Source: Spirodela intermedia
Lineage: Eukaryota > Streptophyta > Magnoliopsida > Alismatales > Araceae
Length of the DNA stretch: 64,000 bases
Direction: 5' to 3'
Assembly: GCA_902729315.2 (NCBI GenBank)
Contig: CACVBZ020000045.1
Span: 1-64,000 of the forward strand
Within the stretch, counting starts at the first letter, position 1, and every line of letters starts with the position of its first letter. Below are positions 1 through 17,554 of the stretch, one piece after another. Position numbers and translations under genes: made by a program. The notes below the pieces were generated by a model. The model was not told the DNA's origin and did no database searches. It saw nothing but the letters and a program-made list of their open reading frames with translations.

Positions 1-18
1 ACCCTAAACCCTAAACCC
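1..18 (+). repeat. Telomere repeat block T0 (C-rich strand) at window start
   Basis: The window opens with two and a half units of CCCTAAA and then degenerates into the 5' leader of LINE copy 1. The C-rich strand reading 5' to 3' at the left edge is the orientation expected at the left end of a chromosome. Only this short stretch is present, so whether it continues into the true telomere cannot be seen here. Confidence 0.85.
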
Positions 19-23
19 AAACC

Positions 24-370
24 ATCGCCATTTGCTCAACTTTTTTCTCTCTCCTCGCGAGAGCTTCTCTCTCCTCACGATCAGCGAAATGGTGAGATCT
101 CCTTCGTGTGACCTCAGATCGCGCTGAAACCTTTTCCATTCGATTCGGAAGGCCGACAGCTATCGGTTTCGAGCTTTTACGCATCGAAAACGGTGGATTA
201 AAGCCTTTGTTTCGCAATTTCCTCATCGCGAAGGTAAACTACCGGAGTTTTCACTCCAAAGGTAATATCTTTCTATTGACTGGGTGAAATTTCATTATTT
301 TTAGTTCAATAGAATCGTATTTGCCTCGTTTACCATTCTCTCTTCTATATCATTTTTATTTGATGCTTAG
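24..370 (+). promoter_or_regulatory. 5' leader and likely internal promoter of LINE copy 1
   Basis: Non-coding leader of about 350 nt before ORF1. It opens with a pyrimidine-rich stretch containing the palindrome TCGCGA, followed by GATC-containing sequence and an AT-rich section just before the ORF. LINEs usually carry an internal Pol II promoter here; that role is inferred. The first bases match the outer leader module of copy 2 and the following bases match its inner module, so copy 1 looks like a version with one module lost. Confidence 0.5.
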
Positions 371-3142
371 ATGATGAGTAGTTCACAGATTTCATCGGGT
401 GACCTCCGTCGCCCAGATGAAAAATCGCCCGACGAATGCGAGCGAACAGGAGGCCGACACGTGGCAGTAACGGCCTCCTGTCTTCGCCTTCTCTCTCCGC
501 CGGTTGATGTAACCGAGGAGACGGCCGTAACCGAGGAGCTGAACGGTCGAACCACGGACGTCCGTGATTCGCCATCAGCTGGCGTCTTCCCGAGACCCGA
601 ATCGGAGGGGACAGCAGTTGACGCCGTCCACTCTCTCTTCGGGAACGAGGCGACGGCAGGCGAAGAGGCCCCCTCTGATCCAACCATTGATCGTATGATC
701 AATGGTCAGAATCAGCCGGCTATAAAGGCGTCAACAGCCGTTACCGAGGCACCGCCCTCGGACGGCCACGGCCATAACGCCGAACCAGATCCAACCGTTG
801 ATCTTGATATCAACGGAGGGGATCACGTGGCCATAAAGGCGCCGCAACTTTTTGCGATCGCCGATGCCTCGGCTGGGACGCTGGTGACGTCATCAACGTC
901 AGACACGGTGGACGTAGCGCCACCTGAGGTCGCTTTAGCCCAGGTCATGCCGGCCCAGCCCAGCGAGGCTGCGCTGGCTCAGGACGTACAGGCACAGGCC
1001 CAGGTGGCCCAGGCCCAGGCCCAGGTGGCCCAGGCCCAGGCCCAGGTGGCCCAGGCCCAAGCCCAGGTGACCCAGGCCAAGCCTGAACAGCCGGCTCAGG
1101 CTGCACCGGTCCAATCTCTTGCCCAGGCAAGGGGCAAGAGCCTGCGGCCCAAAAAGAAGATAGGACGCCGACTTTTACGTCCCCCCTCGGCTACGTCCTC
1201 TAAGCCTACCTCGAGTCAACAAATCGAACCAACTAGGATCCCAACACTAGTTGAGACACCTATATTGACCCCAAACGCATCCATTGGGCACACTATTACA
1301 CCTAGTGGGCTAGACTCTACTGTGCCCCATAGGCCAAACCCGACTATACCCACTAGACACCTATCATGGGCGCAACGAGTGTCTAACCCCTTTGTCCCCT
1401 CCACAGAGACTGTCACACCACAGGAACCGCTACGTCATGTACTATTCCCAATCTATGATACCACTGTCCCAGTGCGAAGCTATAGCGATGATGATGGGAG
1501 GAGGACAATAGCTTTTACTTATGAGGAGGTCTCCCAGATGGCAGCTGCATTCCAATATACCTTAGTTGGTCGTTTCACTACGAAACGACCAACCATAGGT
1601 GACATAGAGAAGATTTACATGGCACCTGGAAATTTTCAGGGCCGAGTCTCCATCGGAGCTCGAGATTATCGTAGCATATACATCCGCTTTGAGCTAGAAG
1701 CGGATTATCGCCGAGCATGGAGCCGACCCACTTGGAGAATGGGGGAGTCTACCCTCCATACCCACAGATGGACACCACAAAATGACATAGGGCACCAAGC
1801 ACATCAGTCTCATGTGGTTCCATTATGGGTGGGCTTCCCTGGCCTACCTGCCCATTTATTTACGCCAAAGGCACTTGAGTCTTTGGCAAATGCGGTGGGA
1901 ACATTCATATGCCTTGATCCAGGCGTAAAAATGTTCAACCGACCCGGATATGCACGAGTTTGTATAGAGGTGGACCTAATGGCTCCCCTCCAGAGGACTC
2001 TCGTTATACGTAGTGGAGATGATGAACTTTATCAGCCCATCATTTATGAGAGACTACCGTATTTCTGCACACACTGTGCGATCTTGGGCCACACTGTCAG
2101 CACATGCCGTCAGAAGGCATGTACACCACAGACGACCACACGAGCCTTTCTAGTACCGATCTCATATGACGATTACCTCGTCGAAATGAGAAAGGATGCT
2201 CAGAGTGCTCGTCATCCTCAGAGGTCGATTGCCCCTATGGCGGCTCCACCTTCCTTACCTCGGAAGGCACAGGAGAAGCCTAGCTCACTGATTGAGACAC
2301 AGCATACACGGCGAAAGCCGGCAGCTGGACGCCCTTCTTCCACCTACACAGGGGGGAAGAAAGGAACACGAGAGGCTACACCTTCCCCTTTGAGCAAGGG
2401 AAAGCAACCCCTAACCTCAAACACCTTCGAGGTCTTAGGGGCTTTAGATGAGAGAGACTTTGAGGGACCTGCACAAAGGGGAACTAGGCCTTCCAAAGGG
2501 CTAGCATCCTCCACTACGAGGGACTCACCTAGTCCAACCCCCCATACTAGATCCCCCCGGGTTATCCGACCCCCCATACTCACCCACCCCACTCCACCCA
2601 TTAGTGTCTCTCCACCACCCAGCTCCTCCCCGCCCATTCACTCGTCCCCACGTAGAAGGAGTCCTTCACCTCTTAGTCCCCACCGACCGAGGTCTACCCC
2701 TTTCTCTGAGGGTATAGGCTTGGGCCCTATCCATCCGCCTCAAATCCCCGTTGATGATCTATTAGGAGGGTCTACCCCCAGCATACTTCCTATTAGTACA
2801 TCTTACATAGCCCCCCATTCTGATTCTTATACCCTCCCCCCCTCTCCCCTATTACAACCGTCAGATCAGTTTCCTATACTTGATCCACCACCCGCTGATT
2901 CTAGGGAGAGCCCCGATAGAGGACAGTGCTTAACGAATCGTCAAGCACCACACCCATCCTCCTCATCTAGTGCTCATGATACTACGGGCCACACGACTAG
3001 TACCCATGAGGATGGTAGCTCTGAGACTGACATTGAGACTACCTACCCAGAGGAGGGATATCAGACGGAGGTTAGGACCACACGACTCACTAGACGCTCA
3101 CCTTACTCCACGAGATCTAGGACTCGTGGGGCCACTCACTAG
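371..3142 (+). CDS. LINE ORF1 protein, gag-like RNA-binding (copy 1, intact)
   Basis: A 923-residue protein expected to bind the element RNA and form the retrotransposition particle. An in-frame TAG directly precedes ATG 371, so the ORF cannot start earlier; a second ATG follows at once. Residues 1-200 are acidic and low in structure. Residues about 206-236 are four copies of the heptad QAQVAQA. A DUF4283-like domain covers about 375-545. A zinc knuckle follows with Cys566, Cys569, His574 and Cys579 (C-x2-C-x4-H-x4-C). The C-terminal third is rich in Pro, Ser and Arg. DUF4283 plus a CCHC knuckle is the usual layout of plant L1 ORF1 proteins. The stop codon TAG lies three bases before the ORF2 ATG, in the same frame. 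Confidence 0.88.
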   Translation: MMSSSQISSGDLRRPDEKSPDECERTGGRHVAVTASCLRLLSPPVDVTEETAVTEELNGRTTDVRDSPSAGVFPRPESEGTAVDAVHSLFGNEATAGEEAPSDPTIDRMINGQNQPAIKASTAVTEAPPSDGHGHNAEPDPTVDLDINGGDHVAIKAPQLFAIADASAGTLVTSSTSDTVDVAPPEVALAQVMPAQPSEAALAQDVQAQAQVAQAQAQVAQAQAQVAQAQAQVTQAKPEQPAQAAPVQSLAQARGKSLRPKKKIGRRLLRPPSATSSKPTSSQQIEPTRIPTLVETPILTPNASIGHTITPSGLDSTVPHRPNPTIPTRHLSWAQRVSNPFVPSTETVTPQEPLRHVLFPIYDTTVPVRSYSDDDGRRTIAFTYEEVSQMAAAFQYTLVGRFTTKRPTIGDIEKIYMAPGNFQGRVSIGARDYRSIYIRFELEADYRRAWSRPTWRMGESTLHTHRWTPQNDIGHQAHQSHVVPLWVGFPGLPAHLFTPKALESLANAVGTFICLDPGVKMFNRPGYARVCIEVDLMAPLQRTLVIRSGDDELYQPIIYERLPYFCTHCAILGHTVSTCRQKACTPQTTTRAFLVPISYDDYLVEMRKDAQSARHPQRSIAPMAAPPSLPRKAQEKPSSLIETQHTRRKPAAGRPSSTYTGGKKGTREATPSPLSKGKQPLTSNTFEVLGALDERDFEGPAQRGTRPSKGLASSTTRDSPSPTPHTRSPRVIRPPILTHPTPPISVSPPPSSSPPIHSSPRRRSPSPLSPHRPRSTPFSEGIGLGPIHPPQIPVDDLLGGSTPSILPISTSYIAPHSDSYTLPPSPLLQPSDQFPILDPPPADSRESPDRGQCLTNRQAPHPSSSSSAHDTTGHTTSTHEDGSSETDIETTYPEEGYQTEVRTTRLTRRSPYSTRSRTRGATH

Positions 3143-3145
3143 ATC

Positions 3146-6100
3146 ATGATACCTAGCATCATATGGAATTGTCGAGGTATAGGTAACCTCGAAACCCAAT
3201 TCTATATAGCTAGCCTTATCAGACAGTATCGACTAGGTATAGTAGGCCTCATTGAGCCTATGATATCATCAGATCGTATCCAACCCTTACTTAGGAGGTT
3301 AGGTATGGATCATTTTCACTCCAACCCCACGAATCATATTTGGATCTTTTGGACTAGACCATACTCTATGGAGTTGCTAGTCGAGGGACCCCAGCATATC
3401 ACTATGACGGCTCGAGATCTCACCCAAGAGTTCACCTTCTCGGTCATCTATGCATCACATAGATCCGAAGAAAGAGAAACTCTTTGGGCGGACCTAGTTC
3501 AATACGTGAGGGACTACCCTACACTAGTTGAGTCTCCTTGGTACCTAGCAGGTGACTTCAACTGTGTCCGTAATACTAGTGAACGTCAAGGTGGGCGAAT
3601 CCCTAGGGCCCGTAATATGGAGATGTTCAATGATTGTATTTTTCGATTAGCTCTTATTGAGCCACCTACATCAGGCAAGGCATGGACGTGGAGCAACAAT
3701 CGAGGGGACGCTTTGATTTATGAGCGTATCGATCGTTGTTTCATCAACAGCATCGCCATGATGCGACATCCCATATTAGTCACGATATTACCCCGTTATA
3801 GGTCAGATCACACCCCGATCCTTATACTCCCTAAACAGAGTATGAGCACCCACAGACCCCCCTTCAGATTTCAAACCATGTGGCTCCAACATGAAAACTT
3901 TCAGAGTTTCGTACGGAATCACTGGTACGGACAGATCTCAGATTCTCCTATGGAGAACCTTAGCTATAGGTTAAGGAATCTCAAACTCCACCTTAAATGG
4001 TGGAACCGACATATCTATGGGAATGTCCATACCCAAGTTGATGCATTGCAAAAAGAGTTAGCAGAAGTTGAAAGACTACTGCAAGCTAGATATTCAGATG
4101 CTGCTTGGGAAAGGAGGAGTAGAGTGAGTGACCAGCTTGATGAGGTTGTGCGACGACAGGAGTTATTCTATCTCCAGAAATCACGCATCCAGTGGTTACA
4201 AGAGGGTGATAGAAACACTCGTTTCTTTCATGTCTCGGTCGCTCATCGCTCACGTTCAGATTATACCTCTCTTTTAGAGACATATGATCATGACCTTTCT
4301 CGCATGCAGGAGGCAGGGGTTGAGTACTTTCGTACTCTCTTAACCTCTCAGCCGATTGAGATTTCTGATGATATGCTCACTTCGATCCCATCATTGGTCA
4401 CTCACCGTGAGAACTCTCTCATAACAGCCATACCCACGGGAGAAGAGATCAAGGAAGTAGTTTTCTCTATGAGCAGACATCGTGCACCCGGGCCAAATGG
4501 TTTCTCAGCTGATTTTTACATTTCATGTTGGGATATCGTTGGCACTGATCTCATCCAGGCCATCAAGGAAATCTTTCGTCGTAAAGTCTTTACACGAAGT
4601 TGGAAGGCCACCTTCCTTGCACTTATACCAAAGGTGACTACCCCAACCTCATTTAGAGACTTTCGACCTATCAGTTTGTGTAACGTGTGTTATAAAGTTG
4701 TATCTAAGATCGTTACACGTAGATTGAGTAGTTTCTTTGATAGACTTATATCTCCAGAACAATGTGGATTTGTCAAGGGACGGTACATTCACGATAACAT
4801 CATGCTAGTACATGAACTAGCACAGTCCCTTGGCCATGATTGTCGAGGCTCTAACATCATCATCAAATTAGACATGGAGAAGGCCTTTGATAGGATAGAG
4901 TGGAGTTTCCTCATTAAGGTTCTTAGATGCTTTGGGTTCACCGACGACTTCATTGACTTAGTCGATGCATGTGTTAGGGAGAATCATTTCTCTTTATTAG
5001 TGAACGGTAGCTCCACACCATTCTTCACGGCCACGAGAGGTCTACGACAGGGCGATCCACTATCACCCACCCTCTTCATCTTAGTTGAAGAAGTCCTCAG
5101 TCGATCCCTCACCCGAGCGATCAATCAAGGACTTATCCGACCATACTACTCGAAGAGGGGTTGCCCGATCATCTCACACTCCCTCTTTGCTGATGATGCG
5201 ATACTCTTCCTCAATGGAGGTGAGACATCCATTAGAGGGCTCATGAGTATTATCTCGAGGTATGAGCGAGCTGCAGGTCAACTCGTAAATGCCTCGAAGA
5301 GTAGTTTCATAGTAGCCCCTTCTACTCCCATAGGGACCATACGACGCATCCAGGGCCTAACAGGGTTCTCTCGTGGACACTTACCTTTTGACTATCTAGG
5401 ATGTCCTATCTTCCTCGGCCGTAGGCGCATACACTATTTTGACGCCCTAGTGGGCAAGTTAAGGAAGAAACTAGCAGGATGGAAGTTACAACTTCTATCC
5501 CCTGGAGGACGGATCCAGTTGATACGCCATGTCCTCATGAGCATACCATTACCTTTTGGCAGTCCATGAGGTACCAGACACCGTCTTACAGTCTATTAGA
5601 CGGATATGTACGTCCTTCCTTTGGGATGGACAACTTGAGGGACCTCGTCGTCAACGCCGAGTTTCTTGGGAGAAAGCATGTCGACCTACGGATGAGGGTG
5701 GCCTAGGTATTAGGCGCCCTCAAGATGTACTTAACATGCTTCAAAAGAAACTCATTTGGAGGATGAGGACCACACCATCGGTGCTAGGTACTTTTGTGTC
5801 AGCCAAATATGGTGAGTGGGCTCGACAGCCGGCTGACATCAAAGGAGTCAAATGATGGGTAGACTGGCAGCGACATTGGTTGGAGATGGTGCCTCTTATT
5901 CGTTGGCGAGTGGGGCGAGGCGAGATCAGTGCCTGGTACGACACTTGGCTAGAGGACACACCATTGGCCTGTTTTACCACTTTCACATCTTCTTGGCCTC
6001 GCTTGACGGTAGCCCAGCTTCTCCAAGGAGACACTCGTCTACTTATTGAGAGGCATGGACTACCGTCGGACTTGTTACCAGCCATCACCATGATTGAGAT

Positions 6101-7220
6101 GAGTTTTACTGAGGACCAACCCATCTGGACACTTACCATAGATGGCAGTTTCTCTTGTAGCTCCTCTTGGGAGCACTTTAGAAACCGCTCCCCAAAGACA
6201 TTTTGGGGAAATCTCATATGGCATCCGGCCATCACACCTCGTGTTTCGTTCTTCCTGTGGAAGTTCATGCACCGAGGACTACCCACCGACGATCGAGTGA
6301 TTGTCACCGATCAAGAGGTGGAAAGGAAATGTCATTGTTGCTCCATCACGACAGACGAAAGTATGGAACATTTATTTTTCCATAGTGATATCGCTGTCGA
6401 GTGTTGGCGTCAACTTCTAGCGAATTGGCTTCCAATGCTCTCGTACAGACCTACGAGACCACCACTAGAGGTCTTTAGGAGAGTCTTTGACTCACCGACG
6501 AGTGTCAAGGTTTGTCCTTTCATCCGTATCTCCATAGCATATATGTTATGGGAAATATGAAAGGGACGTAACTCATCTCGATATGCAGGCCAAGTGATGC
6601 GTGCCACAGAGATTATGAGGCACGTAACACAATGGCTTCGGAGTACTCATTCCTTAGTGCCAAATAAAACGAAACGCTCGCGTTCTGTTTGTGAGGCTTT
6701 TGGGCTTTGGGGACTCCATATCATACCTACACAGACCTGGACTACTGTCCGATCTATTAGATGGACACCACCGAGGGCTGGACAGTGGAAACTCAACGTC
6801 GACGGAGCATCTCAAGGCAACCCAGGATCATCTGGAGGAGGCGGTATCTTACGCGATAGTACAGGATGCATTCTCTTTGCCTTTTCGAACTTTTATAATA
6901 TACAAACTAATACTGTGGCAGAGGCTATGGCAATACGGGATGGTTTGCTTCTTTGTGAGAAGCAAAATATTACTAATATTGTCTTAGAATCTGATTCCAA
7001 AGTGTTAGTGGACATGTTACGTGCAGACTCTTGTCCTCATTGGAGGCTCAAGAATATCTGGGCAGACATCATGCGATGTCGAGGACGCATCACAACCATT
7101 ACGCATCAGTTCCGAGAAGGGAATCAGACAGCCGACACCCTTGCTACGCATGGAGTCAGATCGTGTCGGAGGACAGTCTTCTCTTTTTGGCAGGACATGC
7201 CAAGCCCGAGGTGCTCATAG
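3146..7220 (+). pseudogene. LINE ORF2 (endonuclease-RT-RNase H), copy 1, broken
   Basis: This is the same polyprotein as ORF2 of copy 2 but inactivated. The first 800 or so codons (3146 to about 5550) are open and carry the APE endonuclease and RT domains. A 2-nt loss near 5551 shifts the frame. In the following frame there are nonsense codons at 5853-5855 (CGA to TGA) and 6558-6560 (TGG to TGA), both transitions compatible with decay of methylated cytosine. A further small deletion near 7200 changes the C-terminus. The RNase H motifs are still readable in the 6594-7220 segment. The RT core itself is intact, so a truncated endonuclease-RT protein could still be made, but the zinc-binding and RNase H parts are cut off. 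Confidence 0.9.
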
Positions 7221-8436
7221 ACTTGAGCGACTCGACAACACGCAGGCCTCTCCACGACAGTGGCGTATTGCTTGGAGGAGATCAGGGGTGGTTACTATTG
7301 GCCGCTGAAGACCACAATGGAGATACATCGTACTCTACACAATCATTACTCTCCTCATAATCACATCACATCTACTATCTATCATGCTCAAGTAGTGAGG
7401 ACATAGAACTATCAGCATATGTTGGCATCGGCCCACTTTTGAACTATAGGTCTATAGCACATCAGACCTGCTAAACTAGTTGTGAATCGGCAACCTAGCA
7501 CCTCTCTCAAGATCTTATTAGTACCATCAGCCAGCTTGAACCCATGAGAAGGTAAAGATCTATATCCATAGGATTGACCCTCTCTCCTCTCTCTCTCTCT
7601 CGATTCTCTATTTCTTTCTCCCTCCCTTTCTCTCTCTAGGGAAAAAAAAAAAAAAAAAGACAGCCTACTTCTTTTCCCGGAATCACTAGCCCATCATAGA
7701 CAATTAGTGGAGGGTGAGGGAAAGGGCCCTAAAACCAAAAAAAAAAAAAAAAAAAAAAGGGCAACCTTTTTCCCTTCCCTTAATCACTAGCCTAATGTAC
7801 ACCAAATAATGGGCATTAGTGGAGGGTAAAAGAAGAGGCCCTCAAGGAGAGAGAAAGAAGAGAGAGAGAATAAGAGAAAAGAAAAGAGTTAGAACCAGAG
7901 ACCAAGTCATTCCTCGTGGGGTGAAAGGTCCCTTACCTACTTAGAGGAAGTACGGCAACTGATGATACTAACAAGATCTTGGCCAGAGGGATTAGGCGCG
8001 TGCAACACTAGCAAGGCAAGTTCATATTTGGGCTTATTGTCATGCTTCAGCATAGTTCTATCCTCCTCACTGCCCTAATCACTCTTTTCTCACCACTTTA
8101 TATCAATTTATTTATCTCTTAGAACCACTTACTGCAGCAAACTCTTGTCTTGCAGGAACATTGCATGGCGCACAACATGGAGCTCTCGTCCTACTCCTGT
8201 TGAGCAGATCTTCCAACTTTCATGAACTCAAAGGCTTTTTCAACCCAATGCAAATCAATCACCTTCCTCAAATATGATGAACGCCTTGGAGTCTATCTCC
8301 AGTATCATCACATCCCCTCTTCAAAAGAGGTCTTTCATTCTTCATGTCATCCTCGCCCCTTGTGCGAATGAGATCCCACTTATGTAACCTCGGAATGAGG
8401 TCAAACTTTTATCACTCAATCAAATTTCTTTTTCTT
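7221..8436 (+). other. 3' non-coding region of LINE copy 1 with internal A tracts
   Basis: About 1.2 kb between the ORF2 end and the A tail. It contains a CT-rich stretch (about 7578-7639) and two related blocks of about 100 nt. Each block starts with an A tract (about 7640-7658 and 7737-7758). Each then carries AATCACTAGCC, AGTGGAGGGT and a terminal CCCT in the same order. The two blocks are therefore a diverged tandem duplication. The last 700 nt are non-repetitive and end in a pyrimidine-rich run just before the tail. The same structure is present in copy 2. Confidence 0.7.
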
Positions 8437-8462
8437 AAAAAAAAAAAAAAAAAAAAAAAAAA

Positions 8463-8497
8463 CCCTAAACCCTAAACCCTAAACCCTAAACCCTAAA
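8463..8497 (+). repeat. Telomere repeat block T1, five perfect CCCTAAA
   Basis: Five perfect CCCTAAA units stand directly between the A tail of LINE copy 1 and the leader of LINE copy 2. The junction is A-tract then CCC, in phase with the AAACCC step of the repeat. Confidence 0.97.
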
Positions 8498-8500
8498 AAC

Positions 8501-9041
8501 CCCCTCCACCATCGCCATTTGCTCAACTTTCTGCCTCTCTCCTCGCGAGAGCTTCTCTCTCTCTCTTCAGCGCATGGTGAGATCTCCTTGCGTGTGGCAT
8601 CTATCTCTAAAGAATGTGCCTGAGAGGCACCAAAGTGCTTGGGCATGTGAAGTACCGCCTCCCGAGAAGTTCGGCCCAACTTCTCTTCTTACCGACCGCA
8701 TTTGCTCAACTTTTTTCTCTCTCCTCGCGAGAGCTTCTCTCTCCTCACGATCAGCGCAAATGGTGAGATCTCCTTCGTGTGACCTCAGATCGCGCTGAAA
8801 CCTTTTCCATTCGATTCGGAAGGCCGACAGCTATCGGTTTCGAGCTTTTACGCATCGAAAACGGTGGATTAAAGCCTTTGTTTCGCAATTTCCTCATCGC
8901 GAAGGTAAACTACCGGAGTTTTCACTCCAAAGGTAATATCTTTCTATTGACTGGGTGAAATTTCATTATTTTTAGTTCAATAGAATCGTATTTGCCTCGT
9001 TTACCATTCTCTCTTCTATATCATTTTTATTTGATGCTTAG
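8501..9041 (+). promoter_or_regulatory. Extended 5' leader of LINE copy 2 with duplicated module
   Basis: The leader holds two related modules. The motif ATTTGCTCAAC occurs at 8517 and again at 8700, 183 nt apart. Each is followed by the same pyrimidine-rich stretch with TCGCGA and then by ATGGTGAGATCTCC. The intervening 100 nt are unique. Copy 1 has only one such module, with its first bases like the outer one and the rest like the inner one. Repeated 5' monomers are known in some mammalian L1 promoters; a promoter role here is inference. Confidence 0.6.
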
Positions 9042-11797
9042 ATGATGAGTAGTTCACAGATTTCATCGGGTGACCTCCGTCGCCCAGATGAAAAATCGCC
9101 CGACGAATGCGAGCGAACAGGAGGCCGACACGTGGCAGTAACGGCCTCCTGTCTTCGCCTTCTCTCTCCGCCGGTTGATGTAACCGAGGAGACGGCCGTA
9201 ACCGAGGAGCTGAACGGTCGAACCACGGACGTCCGTGATTCGCCATCAGCTGGCGTCTTCCCGAGACCCGAATCGGAGGGGACAGCAGTTGACGCCGTCC
9301 ACTCGCTCTTCGGGAACGAGGCGACGGCAGGCGAAGAGGCCCCCTCTGATCCAACCATTGATCGTATGATCAATGGTCAGAATCAGCCGGCTATAAAGGC
9401 GTCAACAGCCGTTACCGAGGCACCGCCCTCGGACGGCCACGGCCATAACGCCGAACCAGATCCAACCGTTGATCTTGATATCAACGGAGGGGATCACGTG
9501 GCCATAAAGGCGCCGCAACTTTTTGCGATCGCCGATGCCTCGGCTGGGACGCTGGTGACGTCATCAACGTCAGACACGGTGGACGTAGCGCCACCTGAGG
9601 TCGCTTTAGCCCAGGTCATGCCGGCCCAGCCCAGCGAGGCTGCGCTGGCTCAGGACGTACAGGCACAGGCCCAGGTGGCCCAGGCCCAGGCCCAAGTGGC
9701 CTGGCCCAGGCCCAAGCCCAGGTGACCCAGGCCAAGCCTGAACAGCCGGCTCAGGCTGCACCGGTCCAATCTCTTGCCCAGGCAAGGGGCAAGAGCCTGC
9801 GGCCCAAAAAGAAGATAGGACGCCGACTTTTACGTCCCCCCTCGGCTACGTCCTCTAAGCCTACCTCGAGTCAACAAATCGAACCAACTAGGATCCCAAC
9901 ACTAGTTGAGACTCCTATATTGACCCCAAACGCATCCATTGGGCACACTATTACACCTAGTGGGCTAGACTCTACTGTGCCCCATAGGCCAAACCCGACT
10001 ATACCCACTAGACACCTATCATGGGCGCAACGAGTGTCTAACCCCTTTGTCCCCTCCACAGAGACTGTCACACCACAGGAACCGCTACGTCATGTACTAT
10101 TCCCAACCTATGATACCACTGTCCCAGTGCGAAGCTATAGCGATGATGATGGGAGGAGGACAATAGCTTTTACTTATGAGGAGGTCTCCCAGATGGCAGC
10201 CGCATTCCAATATACCTTAGTTGGTCGTTTCACTACGAAACGACCAACCATAGGTGACATAGAGAAGATTTACATGGCACCTGGAAATTTTCAGGGCCGA
10301 GTCTCCATCGGAGCTCGAGACTATCGTAGCATATACATCCGCTTTGAGCTAGAAGCGGATTATCGCCGAGCATGGAGCCGACCCACTTGGAGAATGGGGG
10401 AGTCTACCCTCCATACCCACAGATGGACACCACAAAATGACATAGGGCACCAAGCACATCAGTCTCATGTGGTTCCATTATGGGTGGGCTTCCCTGGCCT
10501 ACCTGCCCATTTATTTACGCCAAAGGCACTTGAGTCTTTGGCAAATGCGGTGGGAACATTCATATGCCTTGATCCAGGCGTAAAAATGTTCAACCGACCC
10601 GGATATGCACGAGTTTGTATAGAGGTGGACCTAATGGCTCCCCTCCAGAGGACTCTCGTTATACGTAGTGGAGATGATGAACTTTATCAGCCCATCATTT
10701 ATGAGAGACTACCGTATTTCTGCACACACTGTGCGATCTTGGGCCACACTGTCAGCACATGCCGTCAGAAGGCATGTACACCACAGACGACCACACGAGC
10801 CTTTCTAGTACCGATCTCATATGACGATTACCTCGTCGAAATGAGAAAGGATGCTCAGAGTGCTCGTCATCCTCAGAGGTCGATTGCCCCTATGGCGGCT
10901 CCACCTTCCTTACCTCGGAAGGCACAGGAGAAGCCTAGCTCACTGATTGAGACACAGCATACACGGCGAAAGCCGGCAGCTGGACGCCCTTCTTCCACCT
11001 ACACAGGGGGGAAGAAAGGAACACGAGAGGCTACACCTTCCCCTTTGAGCAAGGGAAAGCAACCCCTAACCTCAAACACCTTCGAGGTCTTAGGGGCTTT
11101 AGATGAGAGAGACTTTGAGGGACCTGCACAAAGGGGAACTAGGCCTTCCAAAGGGCTAGCATCCTCCACTACGAGGGACTCACCTAGTCCAACCCCCCAT
11201 ACTAGATCCCCCCGGGTTATCCGACCCCCCATACTCACCCACCCCACTCCACCCATTAGTGTCTCTCCACCACCCAGCTCCTCCCCGCCCATTCACTCGT
11301 CCCCACGTAGAAGGAGTCCTTCACCTCTTAGTCCCCACCGACCGAGGTCTACCCCTTTCTCTGAGGGTATAGGCTTGGGCCCTATCCATCCACCTCAAAT
11401 CCCCGTTGATGATCTATTAGGAGGGTCTACCCCCAGCATACTTCCTATTAGTACATCTTACATAGCCCCCCATTCTGATTCTTATACCCTCCCCCCCTCT
11501 CCCCTATTACAACCGTCAGATCAGTTTCCTATACTTGATCCACCACCCGCTGATTCTAGGGAGAGCCCCGATAGAGGACAGTGCTTAACGAATCGTCAAG
11601 CACCACACCCATCCTCCTCATCTAGTGCTCATGATACTACGGGCCACACGACTAGTACCCATGAGGATGGTAGCTCTGAGACTGACATTGAGACTACCTA
11701 CCCAGAGGAGGGATATCAGACGGAGGTTAGGACCACACGACTCACTAGACGCTCACCTTACTCCACGAGATCTAGGACTCGTGGGGCCACTCACTAG
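9042..11797 (+). pseudogene. LINE ORF1 protein (copy 2, frameshifted in heptad array)
   Basis: The same protein as ORF1 of copy 1, split by a net 16-nt loss inside the GC-rich heptad-repeat array near 9695-9720. The first part ends at TGA 9723-9725 after about 227 codons. The second part is open from about 9722 to 11797 and keeps the DUF4283-like domain, the CCHC knuckle and the Pro/Ser-rich tail. Loss of part of a short tandem repeat suggests slippage. Apart from this the two ORF1 copies differ by only a few substitutions. Confidence 0.9.
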
Positions 11798-11800
11798 ATC

Positions 11801-14800
11801 ATGATACCTAGCATCATATGGAATTGTCGAGGTATAGGCAACCTCGAAACCCAATTCTATATAGCTAGCCTTATCAGACAGTATCGACTAGGTATAGTAG
11901 GCCTCATTGAGCCTATGATATCATCAGATCGTATCCAACCCTTACTTAGGAGGTTAGGTATGGATCATTTTCACTCCAACCCCACGAATCATATTTGGAT
12001 CTTTTGGACTAGACCATACTCTATGGAGTTGCTAGTCGAGGGACCCCAGCATATCACTATGACGGCTCGAGATCTCACCCAAGAGTTCACCTTCTCGGTC
12101 ATCTATGCATCACATAGATCCGAAGAAAGAGAAACTCTTTGGGCGGACCTAGTTCAATACGTGAGGGACTACCCTACACTAGTTGAGTCTCCTTGGTACC
12201 TAGCAGGTGACTTCAACTGTGTCCGTAATACTAGTGAACGTCAAGGTGGGCGAATCCCTAGGGCCCGTAACATGGAGATGTTCAATGATTGTATTTTTCG
12301 ATTAGCTCTTATTGAGCCACCTACATCAGGCGAGGCATGGACGTGGAGCAACAATCGAGGGGACGCTTTGATTTATGAGCGTATCGATCGTTGTTTCATC
12401 AACAGCATCGCCATGATGCGACATCCCATATTAGTCACGATATTACCCCGTTATAGGTCAGATCACACCCCGATCCTCATACTCCCTAAACAGAGTATGA
12501 GCACCCACAGACCCCCCTTCAGATTTCAAACCATGTGGCTCCAACATGAAAACTTTCAGAGTTTCGTACGGAATCACTGGTACGGACAGATCTCAGATTC
12601 TCCTATGGAGAACCTTAGCTATAGGTTAAGGAATCTCAAACTCCACCTTAAATGGTGGAACCGACATATCTATGGGAATGTCCATACCCAAGTTGATGCA
12701 TTGCAAAAAGAGTTAGCAGAAGTTGAAAGACTACTGCAAGCTAGATATTCAGATGCTGCTTGGGAAAGGAGGAGTAGAGTGAGTGACCAGCTTGATGAGG
12801 TTGTGCGACGACAGGAGTTATTCTATCTCCAGAAATCACGCATCCAGTGGTTACAAGAGGGTGATAGAAACACTCGTTTCTTTCATGCCTCGGTCGCTCA
12901 TCGCTCACGTTCAGATTATACCTCTCTTTTAGAGACATATGATCATGACCTTTCCCGCATGCAGGAGGCAGGGGTTGAGTACTTTCGTACTCTCTTAACC
13001 TCTCAGCCGATTGAGATTTCTGATGATATGCTCACTTCGATCCCGTCATTGGTCACTCACCGTGAGAACTCTCTCATAACAGCCATACCCACGGGAGAAG
13101 AGATCAAGGAAGTAGTTTTCTCTATGAGCAGACATCGTGCACCCGGGCCAGATGGTTTCCCAGCTGATTTTTACATTTCATGTTGGGATATCGTTGGCAC
13201 TGATCTCATCCAGGCCATCAAGGAAATCTTTCGTCGTAAACTCTTTACACGAAGTTGGAAGGCCACCTTCCTTGCACTTATACCGAAGGTGACTACCCCA
13301 ACCTCATTTAGAGACTTTCGACCTATCAGTTTGTGTAACGTGTGTTATAAAGTTGTATCTAAGATCGTTACACGTAGATTGAGTAGTTTCCTTGATAGAC
13401 TTATATCTCCAGAACAATGCGGATTTGTCAAGGGACGGTACATTCACGATAACATCATGCTAGTACATGAACTAGCACAGTCCCTTGGCCATGATTGTCG
13501 AGGCTCTAACATCATCATCAAATTAGACATGGAGAAGGCCTTTGATAGGATAGAGTGGAGTTTCCTCATTAAGGTTCTTAGATGCTTTGGGTTCACCGAC
13601 GACTTCATTGACTTAGTCGATGCATGTGTTAGGGAGAATCATTTCTCTTTATTAGTGAACGGTAGCTCCACACCATTCTTCACGGCCACGAGAGGTCTAC
13701 GACAGGGCGATCCACTATCACCCACCCTCTTCATCTTAGTTGAAGAAGTCCTCAGTCGATCCCTCACCCGAGCGATCAATCAAGGACTTATCCGACCATA
13801 CTACTCGAAGAGGGGTTGCCCGATCATCTCACACTCCCTCTTTGCTGATGATGCGATACTCTTCCTCAATGGAGGTGAGACATCCATTAGAGGGCTCATG
13901 AGTATTATCTCGAGGTATGAGCGAGCTGCAGGTCAACTCGTAAATGCCTCGAAGAGTAGCTTCATAGTAGCCCCTTCTACTCCCATAGGGACCATACGAC
14001 GCATCCAGGGCCTAACAGGGTTCTCTCGTGGACACTTACCTTTTGACTATCTAGGATGTCCTATCTTCCTCGGCCGTAGGCGCATACACTATTTTGACGC
14101 CCTAGTGGGCAAGTTAAGGAAGAAACTAGCAGGATGGAAGTTACAACTTCTATCCCCTGGAGGACGGATCCAGTTGATACGCCATGTCCTCATGAGCATA
14201 CCATTACACCTTTTGGCAGTCCATGAGGTACCAGACACCGTCTTACAGACTATTAGACGGATATGTACGTCCTTCCTTTGGGATGGACAACTTGAGGGAC
14301 CTCGTCGTCAACGCCGAGTTTCTTGGGAGAAAGCATGTCGACCTACGGATGAGGGTGGCCTAGGTATTAGGCGCCCTCAAGATGTACTTAACATGCTTCA
14401 AAAGAAACTCATTTGGAGGATGAGGACCACACCATCGGTGCTAGGTACTTTTGTGTCAGCCAAATATGGTGAGTGGGCTCGACAGCCGGCTGACATCAAA
14501 GGAGTCAAACGATGGGCAGACTGGCAGCGACATTGGTTGGAGATGGTGCCTCTTATTCGTTGGCGAGTGGGGCGAGGCGAGATCAGTGCCTGGTACGACA
14601 CTTGGCTAGAGGACACACCATTGGCCTGTTTTACCACTTTCACATCTTCTTGGCCTCGCTTGACGGTAGCCCAGCTTCTCCAAGGAGACACTCGTCTACT
14701 TATTGAGAGGCATGGACTACCGTCGGACTTGTTACCAGCCATCACCATGACTGAGATGAGTTTTACTGAGGACCAACCCATCTGGACACTTACCATAGAT

Positions 14801-15997
14801 GGCAGTTTCTCTTGTAGCTCCTCTTGGGAGCACTTTAGAAACCGCTCCCCAAAGACATTTTGGGGAAATCTCATATGGCATCCGGCCATCACACCTCGTG
14901 TTTCGTTCTTCTTGTGGAAGTTCATGCACCGAGGACTACCCACCGACGATCGAGTGATTGTCACCGATCAGGAGGTGGAAAGGAAATGTCATTGTTGCTC
15001 CATCACGACAGACGAAAGTATGGAACATTTATTTTTCCATAGTGATATCGCTGTCGAGTGTTGGCGTCAACTTCTAGCGAATTGGCTTCCAATGCTCTCG
15101 TACAGACCTACGAGACCACCACTAGAGGTCTTTAGGAGAGTCTTTGACTCACCGACGAGTGTCAAGGTTTGTCCTTTCATCCGTATCTCCATAGCATATA
15201 TGTTATGGGAAATATGGAAGGGACGTAACTCATCTCGATATGCAGGCCAAGTGATGCGTGCCACAGAGATTATGAGGCACGTAACACAATGGCTTCGGAG
15301 TACTCATTCCTTAGTGCCAAATAAAACGAAACGCTCGCGTTCTGTTTGTGAGGCTTTTGGGCTTTGGGGACTCCATATCATACCTACACAGACCTGGACT
15401 ACTGTCCGATCTGTTAGATGGACACCACCGAGGGCTGGACAGTGGAAACTCAACGTCGACGGAGCATCTCAAGGCAACCCAGGATCATCTGGAGGAGGCG
15501 GTATCTTACGCGATAGTACAGGATGCATTCTCTTTGCCTTTTCGAACTTTTATAATATACAAACTAATACTGTGGCAGAGGCTATGGCAATACGGGATGG
15601 TTTGTTTCTTTGTGAGGAGCAAAATATTACTAACATTGTCTTAGAATCTGATTCCAAAGTGTTAGTGGACATGTTACGTGCAGACTCTTGTCCTCATTGG
15701 AGGCTCAAGAATATCTGGGCAGACATCATGCGATGTCGAGGACGCATCACAACTATTACGCATCAATTCCGAGAAGGGAATCAGACAGCTGACGCCCTTG
15801 CTGCGCATGGAGTCAGATCGCGTCGGAGGACAGTCTTCTCTTTTTGGCAGGACATGCCCCTGGAAGCCCGAGGTGCTCATAGACTTGAGCGACTCGGCAT
15901 ACCCTCTTTACGCATACACCGCACTCCACTACCGGCCTCTCCACGACAGTGGCGTATTGCTTGGAGGAGATCAGGGGTGGTTACTATTGGCCGCTGA
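11801..15997 (+). CDS. LINE ORF2 polyprotein: APE endonuclease, RT, zinc-binding, RNase H (intact)
   Basis: A 1398-residue protein that would nick target DNA and copy element RNA from the nick or end. The APE-type endonuclease covers about 1-225, with Asn8, Glu37, GDFN (Asp137, Asn139), RIDR (194-197) and SDH (220-222). The reverse transcriptase covers about 430-760, with Asp576 in KLDMEKAFD and FADD (Asp683, Asp684). A zf-RVT-like region lies at about 1005-1090, with Cys1063, Cys1066, His1076 and His1080. Type I RNase H covers about 1213-1340, with Asp1220, Glu1260, Asp1284 and Asp1331. A C-terminal RNase H is known only in some plant L1 lineages. The ATG lies three bases after the ORF1 stop and in the same frame, suggesting reinitiation or stop readthrough. 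No visible catalytic residue is missing. Confidence 0.93.
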   Translation: MIPSIIWNCRGIGNLETQFYIASLIRQYRLGIVGLIEPMISSDRIQPLLRRLGMDHFHSNPTNHIWIFWTRPYSMELLVEGPQHITMTARDLTQEFTFSVIYASHRSEERETLWADLVQYVRDYPTLVESPWYLAGDFNCVRNTSERQGGRIPRARNMEMFNDCIFRLALIEPPTSGEAWTWSNNRGDALIYERIDRCFINSIAMMRHPILVTILPRYRSDHTPILILPKQSMSTHRPPFRFQTMWLQHENFQSFVRNHWYGQISDSPMENLSYRLRNLKLHLKWWNRHIYGNVHTQVDALQKELAEVERLLQARYSDAAWERRSRVSDQLDEVVRRQELFYLQKSRIQWLQEGDRNTRFFHASVAHRSRSDYTSLLETYDHDLSRMQEAGVEYFRTLLTSQPIEISDDMLTSIPSLVTHRENSLITAIPTGEEIKEVVFSMSRHRAPGPDGFPADFYISCWDIVGTDLIQAIKEIFRRKLFTRSWKATFLALIPKVTTPTSFRDFRPISLCNVCYKVVSKIVTRRLSSFLDRLISPEQCGFVKGRYIHDNIMLVHELAQSLGHDCRGSNIIIKLDMEKAFDRIEWSFLIKVLRCFGFTDDFIDLVDACVRENHFSLLVNGSSTPFFTATRGLRQGDPLSPTLFILVEEVLSRSLTRAINQGLIRPYYSKRGCPIISHSLFADDAILFLNGGETSIRGLMSIISRYERAAGQLVNASKSSFIVAPSTPIGTIRRIQGLTGFSRGHLPFDYLGCPIFLGRRRIHYFDALVGKLRKKLAGWKLQLLSPGGRIQLIRHVLMSIPLHLLAVHEVPDTVLQTIRRICTSFLWDGQLEGPRRQRRVSWEKACRPTDEGGLGIRRPQDVLNMLQKKLIWRMRTTPSVLGTFVSAKYGEWARQPADIKGVKRWADWQRHWLEMVPLIRWRVGRGEISAWYDTWLEDTPLACFTTFTSSWPRLTVAQLLQGDTRLLIERHGLPSDLLPAITMTEMSFTEDQPIWTLTIDGSFSCSSSWEHFRNRSPKTFWGNLIWHPAITPRVSFFLWKFMHRGLPTDDRVIVTDQEVERKCHCCSITTDESMEHLFFHSDIAVECWRQLLANWLPMLSYRPTRPPLEVFRRVFDSPTSVKVCPFIRISIAYMLWEIWKGRNSSRYAGQVMRATEIMRHVTQWLRSTHSLVPNKTKRSRSVCEAFGLWGLHIIPTQTWTTVRSVRWTPPRAGQWKLNVDGASQGNPGSSGGGGILRDSTGCILFAFSNFYNIQTNTVAEAMAIRDGLFLCEEQNITNIVLESDSKVLVDMLRADSCPHWRLKNIWADIMRCRGRITTITHQFREGNQTADALAAHGVRSRRRTVFSFWQDMPLEARGAHRLERLGIPSLRIHRTPLPASPRQWRIAWRRSGVVTIGR

Positions 15998-17175
15998 AGA
16001 CCACAATGGAGATACAGCACAACACGGACAACAAGGCACATCGTAATCCACTCGGGTACATTACTTCCAATCATTACTCTCCTCATAATCACATCACATC
16101 TACTATCTATCATGCTCAAGTAGTGAGGACATAGAACTATCAGCATATGTTGGCATCGGCCCACTTTTGAACTATAGGTCTATAGCACATCAGACCTGCC
16201 AAACTAGTTGTGAATCGGCAACCTAGCACCTCTCTCAAGATCTTATTAGTACCATCAGCCAGCTTGAACCCATGAGAAGGTAAAGATCTATATCCATAGG
16301 ATTGACCCTCTCTCCTCTCTCTCTCTCTCGATTCTCTATTTCTTTCTCCCTCCCTTTCTCTCTCTAGGAAAAAAAAAAAAAAAAAAAAAAAAAGACAGCC
16401 TACTTCTTTTCCCGGAATCACTAGCCCATCATAGACAATTAGTGGAGGGTGAGGGAAAGGGCCCTAAAACCAAAAAACAAAAAAAAAAAAAAAAAAAAAA
16501 GGGGCAACCTTTTTCCCTTCCCTTAATCACTAGCCTAATGTACACCAAATAATGGGCATTAGTGGAGGGTAAAAGAAGAGGCCCTCAAGGAGAGAGAAAG
16601 AAGAGAGAGAGAATAAGAGAAAAGAAAAGAGTTAGAACCAGAGACCAAGTCATTCCTCGTGGGGTGAAAGGTCCCTTACCTACTTAGAGGAAGTACGGCA
16701 ACTGATGATACTAACAAGATCTTGGCCAGAGGGATTAGGCGCGTGCAACACTAGCAAGGCAAGTTCATATTTGGGCTTATTGTCATGCTTCAGCATAGTT
16801 CTATCCTCCTCACTGCCCTAATCACTCTTTTCTCACCACTTTATATCAATTTATTTATCTCTTAGAATCACTTACTGCAGCAAACTCTTGTCTTGCAGGA
16901 ACATTGCATGGCGCACAACATGGAGCTCTCGTCCTACTCCTGTTGAGCAGATCTTCCAACTTTCATGAACTCAAAGTTCAACCCAATGCAAATCAATCAC
17001 CTTCCTCAAACATGATGAACGCCTTAGAGCCTATCTCCAGTATCATCACATCCCCTCTTCAAAAAGAGGTCTTTCATTCTTCATGTCATCCTCGCCCCTT
17101 GTGCGAATGAGATCCCACTTATGTAACCTCGGAATGAGGTCAAACTTTTATCACTCAATCAAATTTCTTCTTCTT
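15998..17175 (+). other. 3' non-coding region of LINE copy 2
   Basis: Equivalent to 7221-8436 of copy 1. It contains the same CT-rich stretch, the same pair of A-tract blocks (A tracts about 16369-16393 and 16470-16500) and the same pyrimidine-rich end before the tail. A-tract lengths differ between copies. There is no sign of a third ORF on either strand. Confidence 0.7.
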
Positions 17176-17196
17176 AAAAAAAAAAAAAAAAAAAAA

Positions 17197-17210
17197 CCCT
17201 AAACCCTAAA
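17197..17210 (+). repeat. Telomere repeat block T2, two CCCTAAA
   Basis: Two perfect CCCTAAA units, then a C run (17211-17216), stand between the A tail of LINE copy 2 and the 5S-headed retroposon. Confidence 0.93.
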
Positions 17211-17516
17211 CCCCCCTAAGTGGGAGAGTTGCCACCGGATCCCATAAGAACTCCGGAGTTAAGCGTGCTCGGGTGGGAGCAGTCACCGGATGGGTGACCT
17301 CCCTGGGAAGTCCCAAGGTACGTGTGCATGCGTTGCGAGACGCTTGCTGTGCATGTGCTGAAAGGCACCGCTGAGTTTCGAAGAACGTGCCAAGAGGCAC
17401 CCCTGCCACCATTGTGCATTATGGTGGAATGCAATGGTGCACACTAGTGATTCTACTAGTGACAATGGTGCATTATCCCATAAGATAGTTATCCCAAAAA
17501 AAAAAAAAAAAAAAAA
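17211..17516 (+). mobile_element. Short retroposon with 5S-rRNA-like head and poly(A) tail
   Basis: About 285 bp plus a 21-nt A tail (17496-17516), lying between two telomere blocks. Positions 17232-17314 match the central and 3' parts of plant 5S rRNA, including CACCGGATCCCAT, AAGTTAAGCGTGC-like and GGATGGGTGACC segments. The first 24 or so nucleotides of 5S are replaced and the 3' end diverges. The remaining 180 bp is unrelated sequence rich in CAATGGTGCA-type motifs. A Pol III head, an anonymous body and an A tail is the layout of a SINE; 5S-derived SINEs (SINE3) are known in fish. The Cassandra TRIM family also carries 5S sequence, but no LTR pair is visible here. It was probably mobilised by the LINE machinery, although its 3' end does not resemble the LINE 3' end. 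Confidence 0.75.
17256..17313 (+). promoter_or_regulatory. 5S-type internal Pol III promoter (A box, IE, C box)
   Basis: An A-box-like segment lies at about 17256-17273 (GAGTTAAGCGTGCTCGGG). An intermediate element and C-box-like segment lie at about 17288-17313 (GGATGGGTGACC, then CTGGGAAGTC). The spacing is close to that of plant 5S genes, with one extra base in the C-box region. Whether it is active cannot be told. Confidence 0.6.
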
Positions 17517-17554
17517 CCCTAAACCCTAAACTACTAGTGACAATGGTGCATTAT
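17453..17554 (+). repeat. 24-bp direct repeat flanking the A tail and T3
   Basis: The sequence beginning CTACTAGTGACAATGGTG occurs at 17453-17476 inside the 5S-headed element. It occurs again at 17531-17554, directly after telomere block T3. The two copies are identical over 24 bp and then diverge. The inner copy may be the start of a 5'-truncated relative of the same retroposon body. Confidence 0.85.
17517..17530 (+). repeat. Telomere repeat block T3, two CCCTAAA
   Basis: Two perfect CCCTAAA units follow the A tail of the 5S-headed retroposon. Beyond this block no further telomere repeats were seen, so it marks the inner edge of the telomeric series. Confidence 0.93.

What the first reader, a model, noticed from the sequence alone, without database searches (positions are those of the whole stretch)
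1..17530. Tandem series of poly(A)-tailed retroelements interleaved with telomere repeats
Three elements in a row (two full-length LINEs and one 5S-headed retroposon) are each followed by an A tail that runs directly into CCCTAAA repeats. The sequence shows this at 8437-8497, 17176-17210 and 17496-17530. Telomere-specific non-LTR elements are established in insects (TRAS and SART in TTAGG arrays; HeT-A and TART at fly chromosome ends). I am not aware of an equally clear case in a flowering plant. The inference is that this LINE lineage targets telomeres or chromosome ends and may add to end length.
Basis: partly seen in the sequence, partly recalled or inferred. Interest (0 to 1): 0.93.

Follow-up and report, generated by a model that had tools for sequence, protein, structure and literature searches.

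The report
Jumping genes lodged in plant telomeres
In a plant genome that is probably the duckweed Spirodela intermedia, most chromosome ends carry copies of a jumping gene or of its small 5S-derived hitchhiker joined by their poly(A) tails to telomere repeats, an arrangement well known in insects and fungi but which a 2025 review did not know from plants.

Summary
Genome-wide, A10 joined to CCCTAAACCC occurs 68 times (reversed-pattern control 0). Of 65 on chromosomes, 60 lie within 60 kb of an end (1.6% of sequence), on 28 of 36 ends. RT copies of at least 90% identity: 22 of 30 terminal, 22 of 22 with the 5' end outward. Tails running into TTTAGGG were not found (0). The best-scoring 5S-headed SINE copies show the same bias (35 of 41; 35 of 35 outward). 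Two host messages also sit at such junctions: eL34 at a chromosome end, and an intronless U1A/U2B''-type copy 361 kb inside C1.

The LINE is a plant L1, not telomere-exclusive: by 3' ends 18 of 40 copies are interior. None of 18 sampled interior 3' ends has telomere repeats; five have 12-16-bp target duplications. Terminal and interior copies intermix in a tree. A TERT domain is present.

Best reading: poly(A) RNAs reverse-transcribed from the telomeric G-strand, telomerase adding repeats outboard. End-priming versus endonuclease nicking is unresolved; a role in telomere maintenance is not shown. The third element in the window is composite.

The parts
1..28 (+). Telomere repeats and short filler directly before LINE copy 1
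   Evidence: CCCTAAACCCTAAA exact at 2-15; element start CATTTGCTCAAC at 29, at or near the start of interior copies
29..8436 (+). LINE copy 1 (plant L1), ORF2 interrupted
   Evidence: 98.8% identical to copy 2; ORFs; domains
371..3142 (+). ORF1 frame of copy 1, stop to stop (DUF4283; zinc knuckle below cut-off)
3143..5569 (+). First part of ORF2 of copy 1 (APE-type endonuclease, RT)
8437..8462 (+). A tail of copy 1 (26 A)
8463..8497 (+). (CCCTAAA)5 telomere tract
8508..8698 (+). LINE 5' fragment (8508-8596) plus SINE-like piece; the C8 right-end copy has the same SINE-to-LINE joint
   Evidence: joint compared by eye
8699..17175 (+). LINE copy 2
11798..15997 (+). Open ORF2 of copy 2, 1399 aa: endonuclease, RT, zf-RVT, RNase H
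   Evidence: best named relatives are plant proteins
17176..17196 (+). A tail of copy 2 (21 A)
17197..17210 (+). (CCCTAAA)2 telomere tract
17211..17413 (+). 5S-headed SINE, head part only (right limit approximate)
   Evidence: 5S rRNA model match 17208-17326; genome copies
17453..17476 (+). 24-bp direct repeat, left copy
17477..17530 (+). 54-bp insert: 19 bp of SINE 3' end, A21, (CCCTAAA)2
17531..17554 (+). 24-bp direct repeat, right copy

Best explanation
This is a plant L1-type LINE whose machinery writes poly(A) RNAs into telomeres. The RNAs are its own transcript, a 5S-headed SINE and occasionally host mRNAs. The poly(A) tail is copied from a 3' end of the telomeric G-strand (ending in TTTAGGG or GGGTTT), so each copy points its 5' end at the chromosome tip and its A tail runs into CCCTAAA. 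Telomerase then adds repeats outboard, and repetition builds alternating chains of telomere repeats and retrocopies. The same element also inserts at interior T|A sites with 12-16-bp duplications, so its endonuclease works in the usual way there. Shown: position, orientation, RNA origin, and the ordinary interior mode. Inferred: priming by the G-strand, and telomerase capping. Two sub-modes are possible, priming at or near the physical end (HeT-A-like) or at a nick inside the array (TRAS-like, first rival below); I think the first is somewhat more likely.
For: (1) 68 exact A10-CCCTAAACCC junctions, reversed-pattern control 0; 60 of 65 on chromosomes within 60 kb of an end (1.6% of sequence), on 28 of 36 ends. 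(2) Orientation: RT copies of >=90% identity 22 of 30 terminal, 22 of 22 outward; best-scoring SINE heads 35 of 41 terminal, 35 of 35 outward; A10 followed within 7 bases by GGGTTTAGGGTT: 0, while the similarly strict A12-(CCCTAAA)2 gave 134 forward and 45 reverse overlapping matches. (3) The last kb (835 bp for C3) of all 18 right chromosome ends holds a TTTAGGG array (8) or LINE/SINE (11, C4 both); the displayed hits are all 5'-outward. (4) RNA origin: at C12's right end the eL34 3' part with A23, which the source gene lacks (C8:5891452, 97%); an intronless U1A/U2B''-type copy between telomere-like tracts, source gene in 4 pieces on C1; a 5'-truncated LINE directly after telomere repeats (L064). 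(5) Within the 30 loci: telomere repeats after the A tail in 15 of 17 distinct terminal copies and 0 of 11 interior (read by eye; Fisher p 3.6e-6). (6) 5' side, by eye: telomere-like sequence directly upstream in 11 of 15 terminal copies (one more unclear) and 0 of 5 interior. (7) Interior target duplications in 5 copies. (8) Terminal and interior copies intermix in a tree. (9) A TERT domain is present.
Against: By 3' ends only 22 of 40 copies are terminal. Some junctions were spread by exchange between ends: C4R, C5L and C14R share an identical 3' end and A22. Five of 65 chromosomal junctions lie away from ends and one of the 60 terminal ones points inward. RT copies of 75-89% identity: 16 of 19 near ends but only 12 of 16 outward. 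Two of 17 terminal copies have no telomere repeats after the tail (L060, L067), and three of 15 terminal 5' ends have none upstream. The insert at 17477-17530 seems to carry its telomere repeats with it. The identified U1A/U2B''-type junction is 361 kb from the chromosome end. The priming step is invisible in sequence, and no raw reads were checked.
Confidence: 0.82

Rival explanations
1. TRAS-like sub-mode of the explanation above: the L1 endonuclease nicks the telomeric G-strand at GGGTTT|AGGG inside the array and starts target-primed reverse transcription there; no free end is needed.
For: Interior copies show ordinary insertion at T|A targets, e.g. GGTT|AG and GTTT|AC. Scored with those five sites, the best position in the telomere repeat is GGGTTT|AGGG on the G-strand (2.93; best C-strand 0.31), which predicts the observed polarity. 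If the endonuclease really preferred GGTTTAG or GGGTTTAG, telomeres would hold 51% or 84% of all sites. At least 24 of 29 distinct junctions in the listed part (my reading) have the GGG(T)n phase, against 4/7 by chance (p 0.003).
Against: The 2.93 score is below the random 99th percentile of 3.98. The five interior sites share only a loose TT|A; if TTA(A/G) or TTTA(A/G) sites were used equally, telomeres would get about 0.5-1.2% of insertions (from site density in the window and an assumed 3 kb per end). Tracts next to A tails are short (median 22.5 bp in 60 pieces), whereas a nick at random in kilobases of repeat should leave long tracts unless they shrink later.
Confidence: 0.35
2. Subtelomeric recombination or break-induced replication spread a few insertions to many ends; the element has no preference for telomeres.
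For: C4R, C5L and C14R share an identical LINE 3' end and A22; matches in the right ~83 kb of C1 and C6 lie at equal distances from the end; the U1A/U2B''-type copy has relatives at C1:11382106 and C18:4491738.
Against: A-tail lengths run from 10 (the pattern's minimum) to 57, there are several LINE 3' variants and upstream poly(A) sites, different 5' truncations, and 68 junctions of at least three RNA classes.
Confidence: 0.1
3. RNA-carried repeats: read-through RNAs ending in CCCUAAA pair with the G-overhang, as described for Terminons (PMC12477314 passage), so the telomere repeats after the tail come partly from the RNA.
For: The insert at 17477-17530 has (CCCTAAA)2 inside a 24-bp duplication; interior junctions at C11:952752, C11:8289456 and C6:5653532 (the last an old LINE) also have exactly two perfect repeats; two is the commonest number of perfect repeats, 31 of 68 (32 after correcting L183).
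Against: 0 of 18 sampled interior LINE 3' ends carry CCCTAAA. The eL34 source gene has no telomere repeats after its poly(A) site.
Confidence: 0.15
4. Assembly artefact: telomere repeats joined to LINE ends by misassembly.
For: Chromosome ends are hard to assemble; C1 and C6 share a terminal block; six of the contig starts fetched read N.
Against: The same arrangement recurs on 28 ends with different sequences; an intronless retrocopy and tails absent from the source gene would not arise by misjoining.
Confidence: 0.04

Closest known systems
Zepp (Chlorella vulgaris)
   Same: LINE accumulated in the telomeric region of a green alga (named in PMC10088271 passages; Zepp of Coccomyxa classed LINE/L1 in PMC11005252 passages)
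   Different: Green alga; no SINE partner or host-mRNA copies at the junctions known to me (recalled). Here the host is a flowering plant and interior copies are common.
TRAS and SART (Bombyx, Tribolium)
   Same: Non-LTR elements inside telomerase-made repeats (PMC10088271 passages)
   Different: R1-type families; PMC10088271 says SART and TRAS insert in opposite orientations. Here nearly all copies have one orientation, and the L1 element also inserts elsewhere.
HeT-A/TART/TAHRE (Drosophila)
   Same: Head-to-tail arrays, 5' end toward the tip, A tail inward (recalled)
   Different: Telomerase is missing in Drosophila (PMC10088271 passage); here a TERT domain and TTTAGGG arrays are present.
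MoTeR (Pyricularia) and FoTeR (Fusarium)
   Same: Telomere arrays of elements separated by short interstitial repeats. MoTeR stable tracts have at most two repeats (PMC7367193 passages); FoTeR 3' ends run into 3-7 repeats (PMC12857005 section 19; up to 8 for one truncated form).
   Different: Fungal; FoTeRs are described as uniquely at chromosome ends (PMC12857005 abstract); MoTeR belongs to another LINE clade with a different endonuclease (recalled).
Endonuclease-independent L1 at mammalian telomeres (Morrish 2007, seen only as a reference in PMC4700185)
   Same: L1 machinery using a telomere end as primer (title; details recalled)
   Different: Shown in repair- and telomere-deficient cultured cells (recalled); here natural and genome-wide.
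Athena/Terminons and Selaginella Penelope-like elements
   Same: Attach to G-rich overhangs (Terminons); telomere-associated elements in a land plant (Selaginella), both from PMC12477314 passages
   Different: Penelope-like, not LINE; Selaginella is a spike moss.

Membership tests
Plant L1 LINE | ORF1 with DUF4283/zinc knuckle; ORF2 with APE-type endonuclease, RT, zf-RVT, RNase H | tested here: met
   (zinc knuckle 23.8 and 24.6 bits, below its cut-off of 27); named top homologues with the same domains are plant proteins (Nicotiana, Coffea, Macadamia) at 31-35% identity
Plant L1 LINE | A tail, 5' truncation, target-site duplications at ordinary sites | tested here: met
   5 interior copies with 12-16-bp duplications, four by script, one by eye, two of them with filler bases; a full-length interior copy at C5:2698582-2712923 showed none by eye; L066 was not testable, its match beginning inside the element
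Telomere-associated non-LTR retrotransposons (as a kind) | A tail or 3' end joined to telomere repeats at chromosome ends in one orientation | tested here: met
TRAS/SART (telomere-repeat-specific) | Insertion essentially only in telomere repeats | tested here: not met
   18 of 40 3' ends interior
HeT-A/TART/TAHRE | Host without telomerase, ends made of the elements alone | tested here: not met
   TERT RNA-binding domain at C1:8638861, 109 bits; TTTAGGG arrays at 8 of 18 right ends. Telomerase activity itself not tested
HeT-A/TART/TAHRE | Extension by priming on the physical chromosome end | not testable with these tools
   sequence cannot separate end-priming from a nick in the array
5S-derived SINE (SINE3 type) | 5S rRNA-like head | tested here: inconclusive
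   5S model 37.5 bits, E 2.6e-6, full-length but just below gathering 38
5S-derived SINE (SINE3 type) | A tail, many dispersed copies | tested here: met
   41 SINE junctions with an A tail (corrected), most ending in an AAGACAGTTATC-like sequence; 85 matches

The most novel reading that the evidence does not exclude
A flowering plant with telomerase in which an ordinary L1 machinery patches chromosome ends: G-strand ends prime reverse transcription of whatever poly(A) RNA is bound, including host mRNAs, so chromosome ends are built jointly by telomerase and retrotransposition, and SINEs and retrogenes are born there.
Probability: 0.4. Interest if true: 0.95.

Novelty: new variant of a known kind. 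Interest (0 to 1): 0.88.

Why it matters
A 2025 review states that in plants no telomeric retrotransposons like those of flies have been found so far (PMC12477314, passages). This genome has a LINE or its SINE next to telomere repeats on at least 28 of 36 chromosome ends, in an aquatic plant whose likely genus is called mainly asexually propagating (PMC7645714 abstract start), with a TERT domain present, a SINE partner and at least one terminal host-mRNA copy in the same position. Because the same element also inserts normally elsewhere, it shows how an unspecialised L1 can occupy a telomeric niche. If the host is a duckweed, end-priming, telomere length and LINE activity become directly testable in a fast-growing laboratory plant.

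Tried and rejected
Idea that CCCTAAA is just the LINE's own 5' end (telobox in a promoter) with tandem insertion: rejected, because five interior copies start at or within about nine bases of CATTTGCTCAAC without telomere repeats, and tails meet CCCTAAA also where a SINE or other sequence follows. Sequence preference of the endonuclease alone: insufficient with the loose motif seen in five interior sites, though a strong preference for GGTTTAG would suffice. G-quadruplex strand bias: weak (4 antisense against 0 sense G3 motifs in one copy), not used. A tree to find a telomere-only lineage: none (7 label changes, shuffled mean 8.8, 68 of 500 shuffles as low; 14 of 23 inner branches open). Rfam at gathering found nothing in the window. 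Seven pieces fetched to find more interior element ends missed them or gave only simple-repeat matches (L126-L129, L133, L134, L140).

Counting notes: the orientation of the A-CCCTAAA junctions is partly forced by the polarity of telomere arrays, so the RT, SINE and opposite-polarity counts carry that claim. The opposite-polarity pattern needs 12 telomere bases, the junction pattern 10. The class counts (SINE 39, LINE 19, other 10) were corrected by hand to SINE 41, LINE 18, other 9: L149 is the U1A/U2B''-type copy, L183 a SINE, L165 a SINE by eye. RT counts use the first 59 rows of the capped list (2 on C30; 30, 19 and 8 by identity band). In the 19-mer count the C30 copies and the C6 copy of the C1 terminal block were dropped. 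The SINE, LINE-3' and LINE-5' DNA searches scored only 40 of 160, 108 and 61 candidates, so copy numbers are lower bounds. Junction events are not all independent, so the binomial value is only a guide.


Full report
WHAT IS IN THE WINDOW. The window is contig C30:1-64000 of a held genome of 136,496,439 bases in 32 contigs. Two 98.8% identical LINEs lie head to tail. Their tails (A26 at 8437-8462, A21 at 17176-17196) run into (CCCTAAA)5 and (CCCTAAA)2. Domains are those of a plant L1, and copy 2 keeps an open 1399-aa ORF2.

WHICH ORGANISM. The assembly has 18 large contigs (C1-C18) and 14 small ones (lengths). This fits Spirodela intermedia (n = 18; clone 8410 assembled with Nanopore/Illumina, all 18 pseudomolecules ending in telomeric sequence; PMC7645714, passages). 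That paper puts 45S rDNA about 83 kb from a ChrSi01 telomere and a second locus on ChrSi06; here matches in the last ~83 kb of C1 and C6 lie at equal distances from the end. The identification is an inference, and I did not look for rDNA. C30 is unplaced; that it is a chromosome end is also an inference.

GENOME-WIDE CENSUS. A10-CCCTAAACCC occurs 68 times (31 forward, 37 reverse) and the reversed pattern never. Three are on C30 and 65 on chromosomes: 60 within 60 kb of an end, on 28 of 36 ends, 59 of 60 with the element's 5' side outward. The five others are C1:11086279 and C1:11105369 (381 and 361 kb from the end), C6:5653532, C11:952752 and C11:8289456; the inward one is C9:29355. Within 50 kb the count is 59 of 65. 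The 60-kb zones are 1.6% of the sequence; binomial tail about 1e-101, a guide only since events are not all independent. Because telomere arrays have a fixed polarity, I also searched A10 followed within 7 bases by GGGTTTAGGGTT: 0. RT matches with at least 90% identity: 30 on chromosomes (2 more on C30); 22 lie near ends (within 50 kb), on 17 ends, and 22 of 22 point outward. For 75-89% identity it is 16 of 19 near ends but 12 of 16 outward, which may reflect later rearrangement; under 75%, 5 of 8 near ends, 5 of 5 outward. Of 31 listed pieces under 60% identity, 8 are near ends, 6 of these in the C1 terminal block. Five RT matches lie in a stop-free 1399-aa frame: C2 right, C8 left, C14 right, C18 left and C30. 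In the last kb of the 18 right ends, 8 show TTTAGGG arrays and 11 show LINE or SINE (C4 both), so all 18 show one or the other; the displayed hits are all on the minus strand. The left ends were not fetched in the same way, and several contig starts read N.

RESULTS AGAINST A PURELY TELOMERIC ELEMENT. By an exact 19-mer of the LINE 3' end, 22 of 40 copies are within 90 kb of an end (21 outward; 20 of 40 within 50 kb) and 18 are interior. In the 30 loci (17 distinct terminal, 2 duplicates, 11 interior), telomere repeats follow the tail in 15 of 17 terminal and 0 of 11 interior copies (by eye; Fisher). With seven more interior 3' ends the interior count is 0 of 18; one interior LINE end with two repeats, C6:5653532, is known from the junction pattern. 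Five interior copies have target duplications of 12-16 bp: L043, L046, L047, L048 and C5:2.49-2.50 Mb (by eye). One full-length interior copy at C5:2.70-2.71 Mb showed none by eye. A tree of 28 3'-UTRs mixes terminal and interior copies. So this is a generalist L1 with a strong telomeric habit, not a telomere-only lineage.

THREE KINDS OF RNA. Of the 68 junctions, 41 are SINE, 18 LINE and 9 other (corrected and one by eye). The SINE head resembles 5S rRNA; its 41 best chromosomal places are terminal in 35, all 35 outward; the six others are C11:548549, C18:1187894 and four on C1, one of them 83 kb from the end. Two of the nine others are host messages. At C12's right end lie the last 31 codons and the 3' UTR of ribosomal protein eL34, then A23 and (CCCTAAA)17; the gene copy at C8:5891452 (97%) has no A run or telomere repeat there. 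At C1:11105369, 361 kb from the end, an intronless copy of a U1A/U2B''-type protein gene (best match U2 snRNP B'') lies between telomere-like tracts; its source on C1:8544038-8546655 is split in four pieces, and partial or whole further copies lie at C1:11382106 and C18:4491738. The other seven are unidentified. On C5 left a 5'-truncated LINE (from element position 3978) directly follows about 150 bp of telomere repeat.

MECHANISM. Shown: RNA origin, polarity, position, ordinary interior insertion, presence of a TERT domain. Inferred: the telomeric G-strand primes synthesis on the A tail. A 3' end in GGG, GGGT, GGGTT or GGGTTT gives the same A-CCCTAAA junction. Eleven of 15 terminal 5' ends (one more unclear) have telomere-like sequence, often plus a few odd bases, directly before the element; three have other sequence; of five interior ones none has (by eye). 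This is what one expects if telomerase or repair caps the new end. With the loose TT|A motif of five interior sites, telomeres would receive about 0.5-1.2% of insertions; a real preference for GGTTTAG or GGGTTTAG would raise that to 51% or 84% (3 kb per end assumed, site density from the window). So either end-priming, tethering or better survival at ends is needed, or a sharper endonuclease taste than the five sites show. Tracts after the tail are short: median 22.5 bp, 5 of 60 reaching the end of the piece read. In the sister species S. polyrhiza telomeres average 3 kb (PMC8825320 passages). In the blast fungus, stable interstitial tracts between MoTeRs have at most two repeats and longer ones break (PMC7367193 passages). 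The commonest perfect-repeat number here is also two (31 of 68), so shrinkage of longer tracts is a fair alternative to insertion at short ends.

THE THIRD ELEMENT. At 17477-17530 a 54-bp piece (SINE 3' end, A21, two telomere repeats) is flanked exactly by a 24-bp duplication. The left copy is not preceded by CCCTAAA, so the repeats came with the insert, perhaps from read-through RNA of a telomeric SINE or from telomerase acting on the primer. This does not fit the simple model and is left open.

PRIOR WORK. Full-text searches: Spirodela/telomere/LINE/retrotransposon, telomere-specific/non-LTR retrotransposon/plant/TTTAGGG (23), telomere/LINE/Zepp/Chlorella, telomeric retrotransposon/chromosome ends/angiosperm/LINE (50), duckweed/telomere/subtelomere/retrotransposon, 3 of 4, 5S rRNA/derived SINE/plant/SINE3, LINE retrotransposon/telomeric repeats/plant genome/inserted into telomere, 3 of 4, Spirodela/Lemna/telomere/LINE element, 3 of 4, endonuclease-independent/telomere/LINE-1/retrotransposition. 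From the listings and the passages I opened I saw no report of this in a flowering plant; I did not open every listed paper. A 2025 review says no telomeric retrotransposons similar to those of flies have been found in plants (PMC12477314 passages), while naming Penelope-like elements in Selaginella and subtelomeric Retand in Silene. PMC10088271 (passages) lists known cases, including Zepp1 of Chlorella. Other papers seen as passages: PMC4700185, PMC11005252; PMC12857005 abstract and one section. The library is open-access only, so subscription papers could have been missed.

Noticed in passing
17453-17554: 24-bp direct repeat flanking a 54-bp insert that itself contains A21 and (CCCTAAA)2; suggests a telomere-repeat-bearing RNA or a telomerase-extended primer.
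   Followed up: partly
21264-22790: Open frame with a class-3 lipase domain (PF01764, 2.6e-32), on the chromosome side of the array.
   Followed up: no
52168-53311: LINE fragment, 73% identical to the telomeric LINE.
   Followed up: no
23979-54622: Many inverted and direct repeats of 71-88% identity (e.g. 25331-26632 against 50797-49465, 27881-29721 against 35995-34164).
   Followed up: no
L019 (C1:11103865-11106890): Telomere-repeat and SINE cluster about 360 kb inside C1 with an intronless U1A/U2B''-type retrocopy; possibly a former chromosome end.
   Followed up: partly
L051 (C8 left end): An inverted LINE fragment follows a LINE tail and a short telomere tract.
   Followed up: no
L142 (C11:8289360-8289580): Interior SINE tail, two telomere repeats and what looks like a LINE 5' fragment, about 950 kb from the end.
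   Followed up: no
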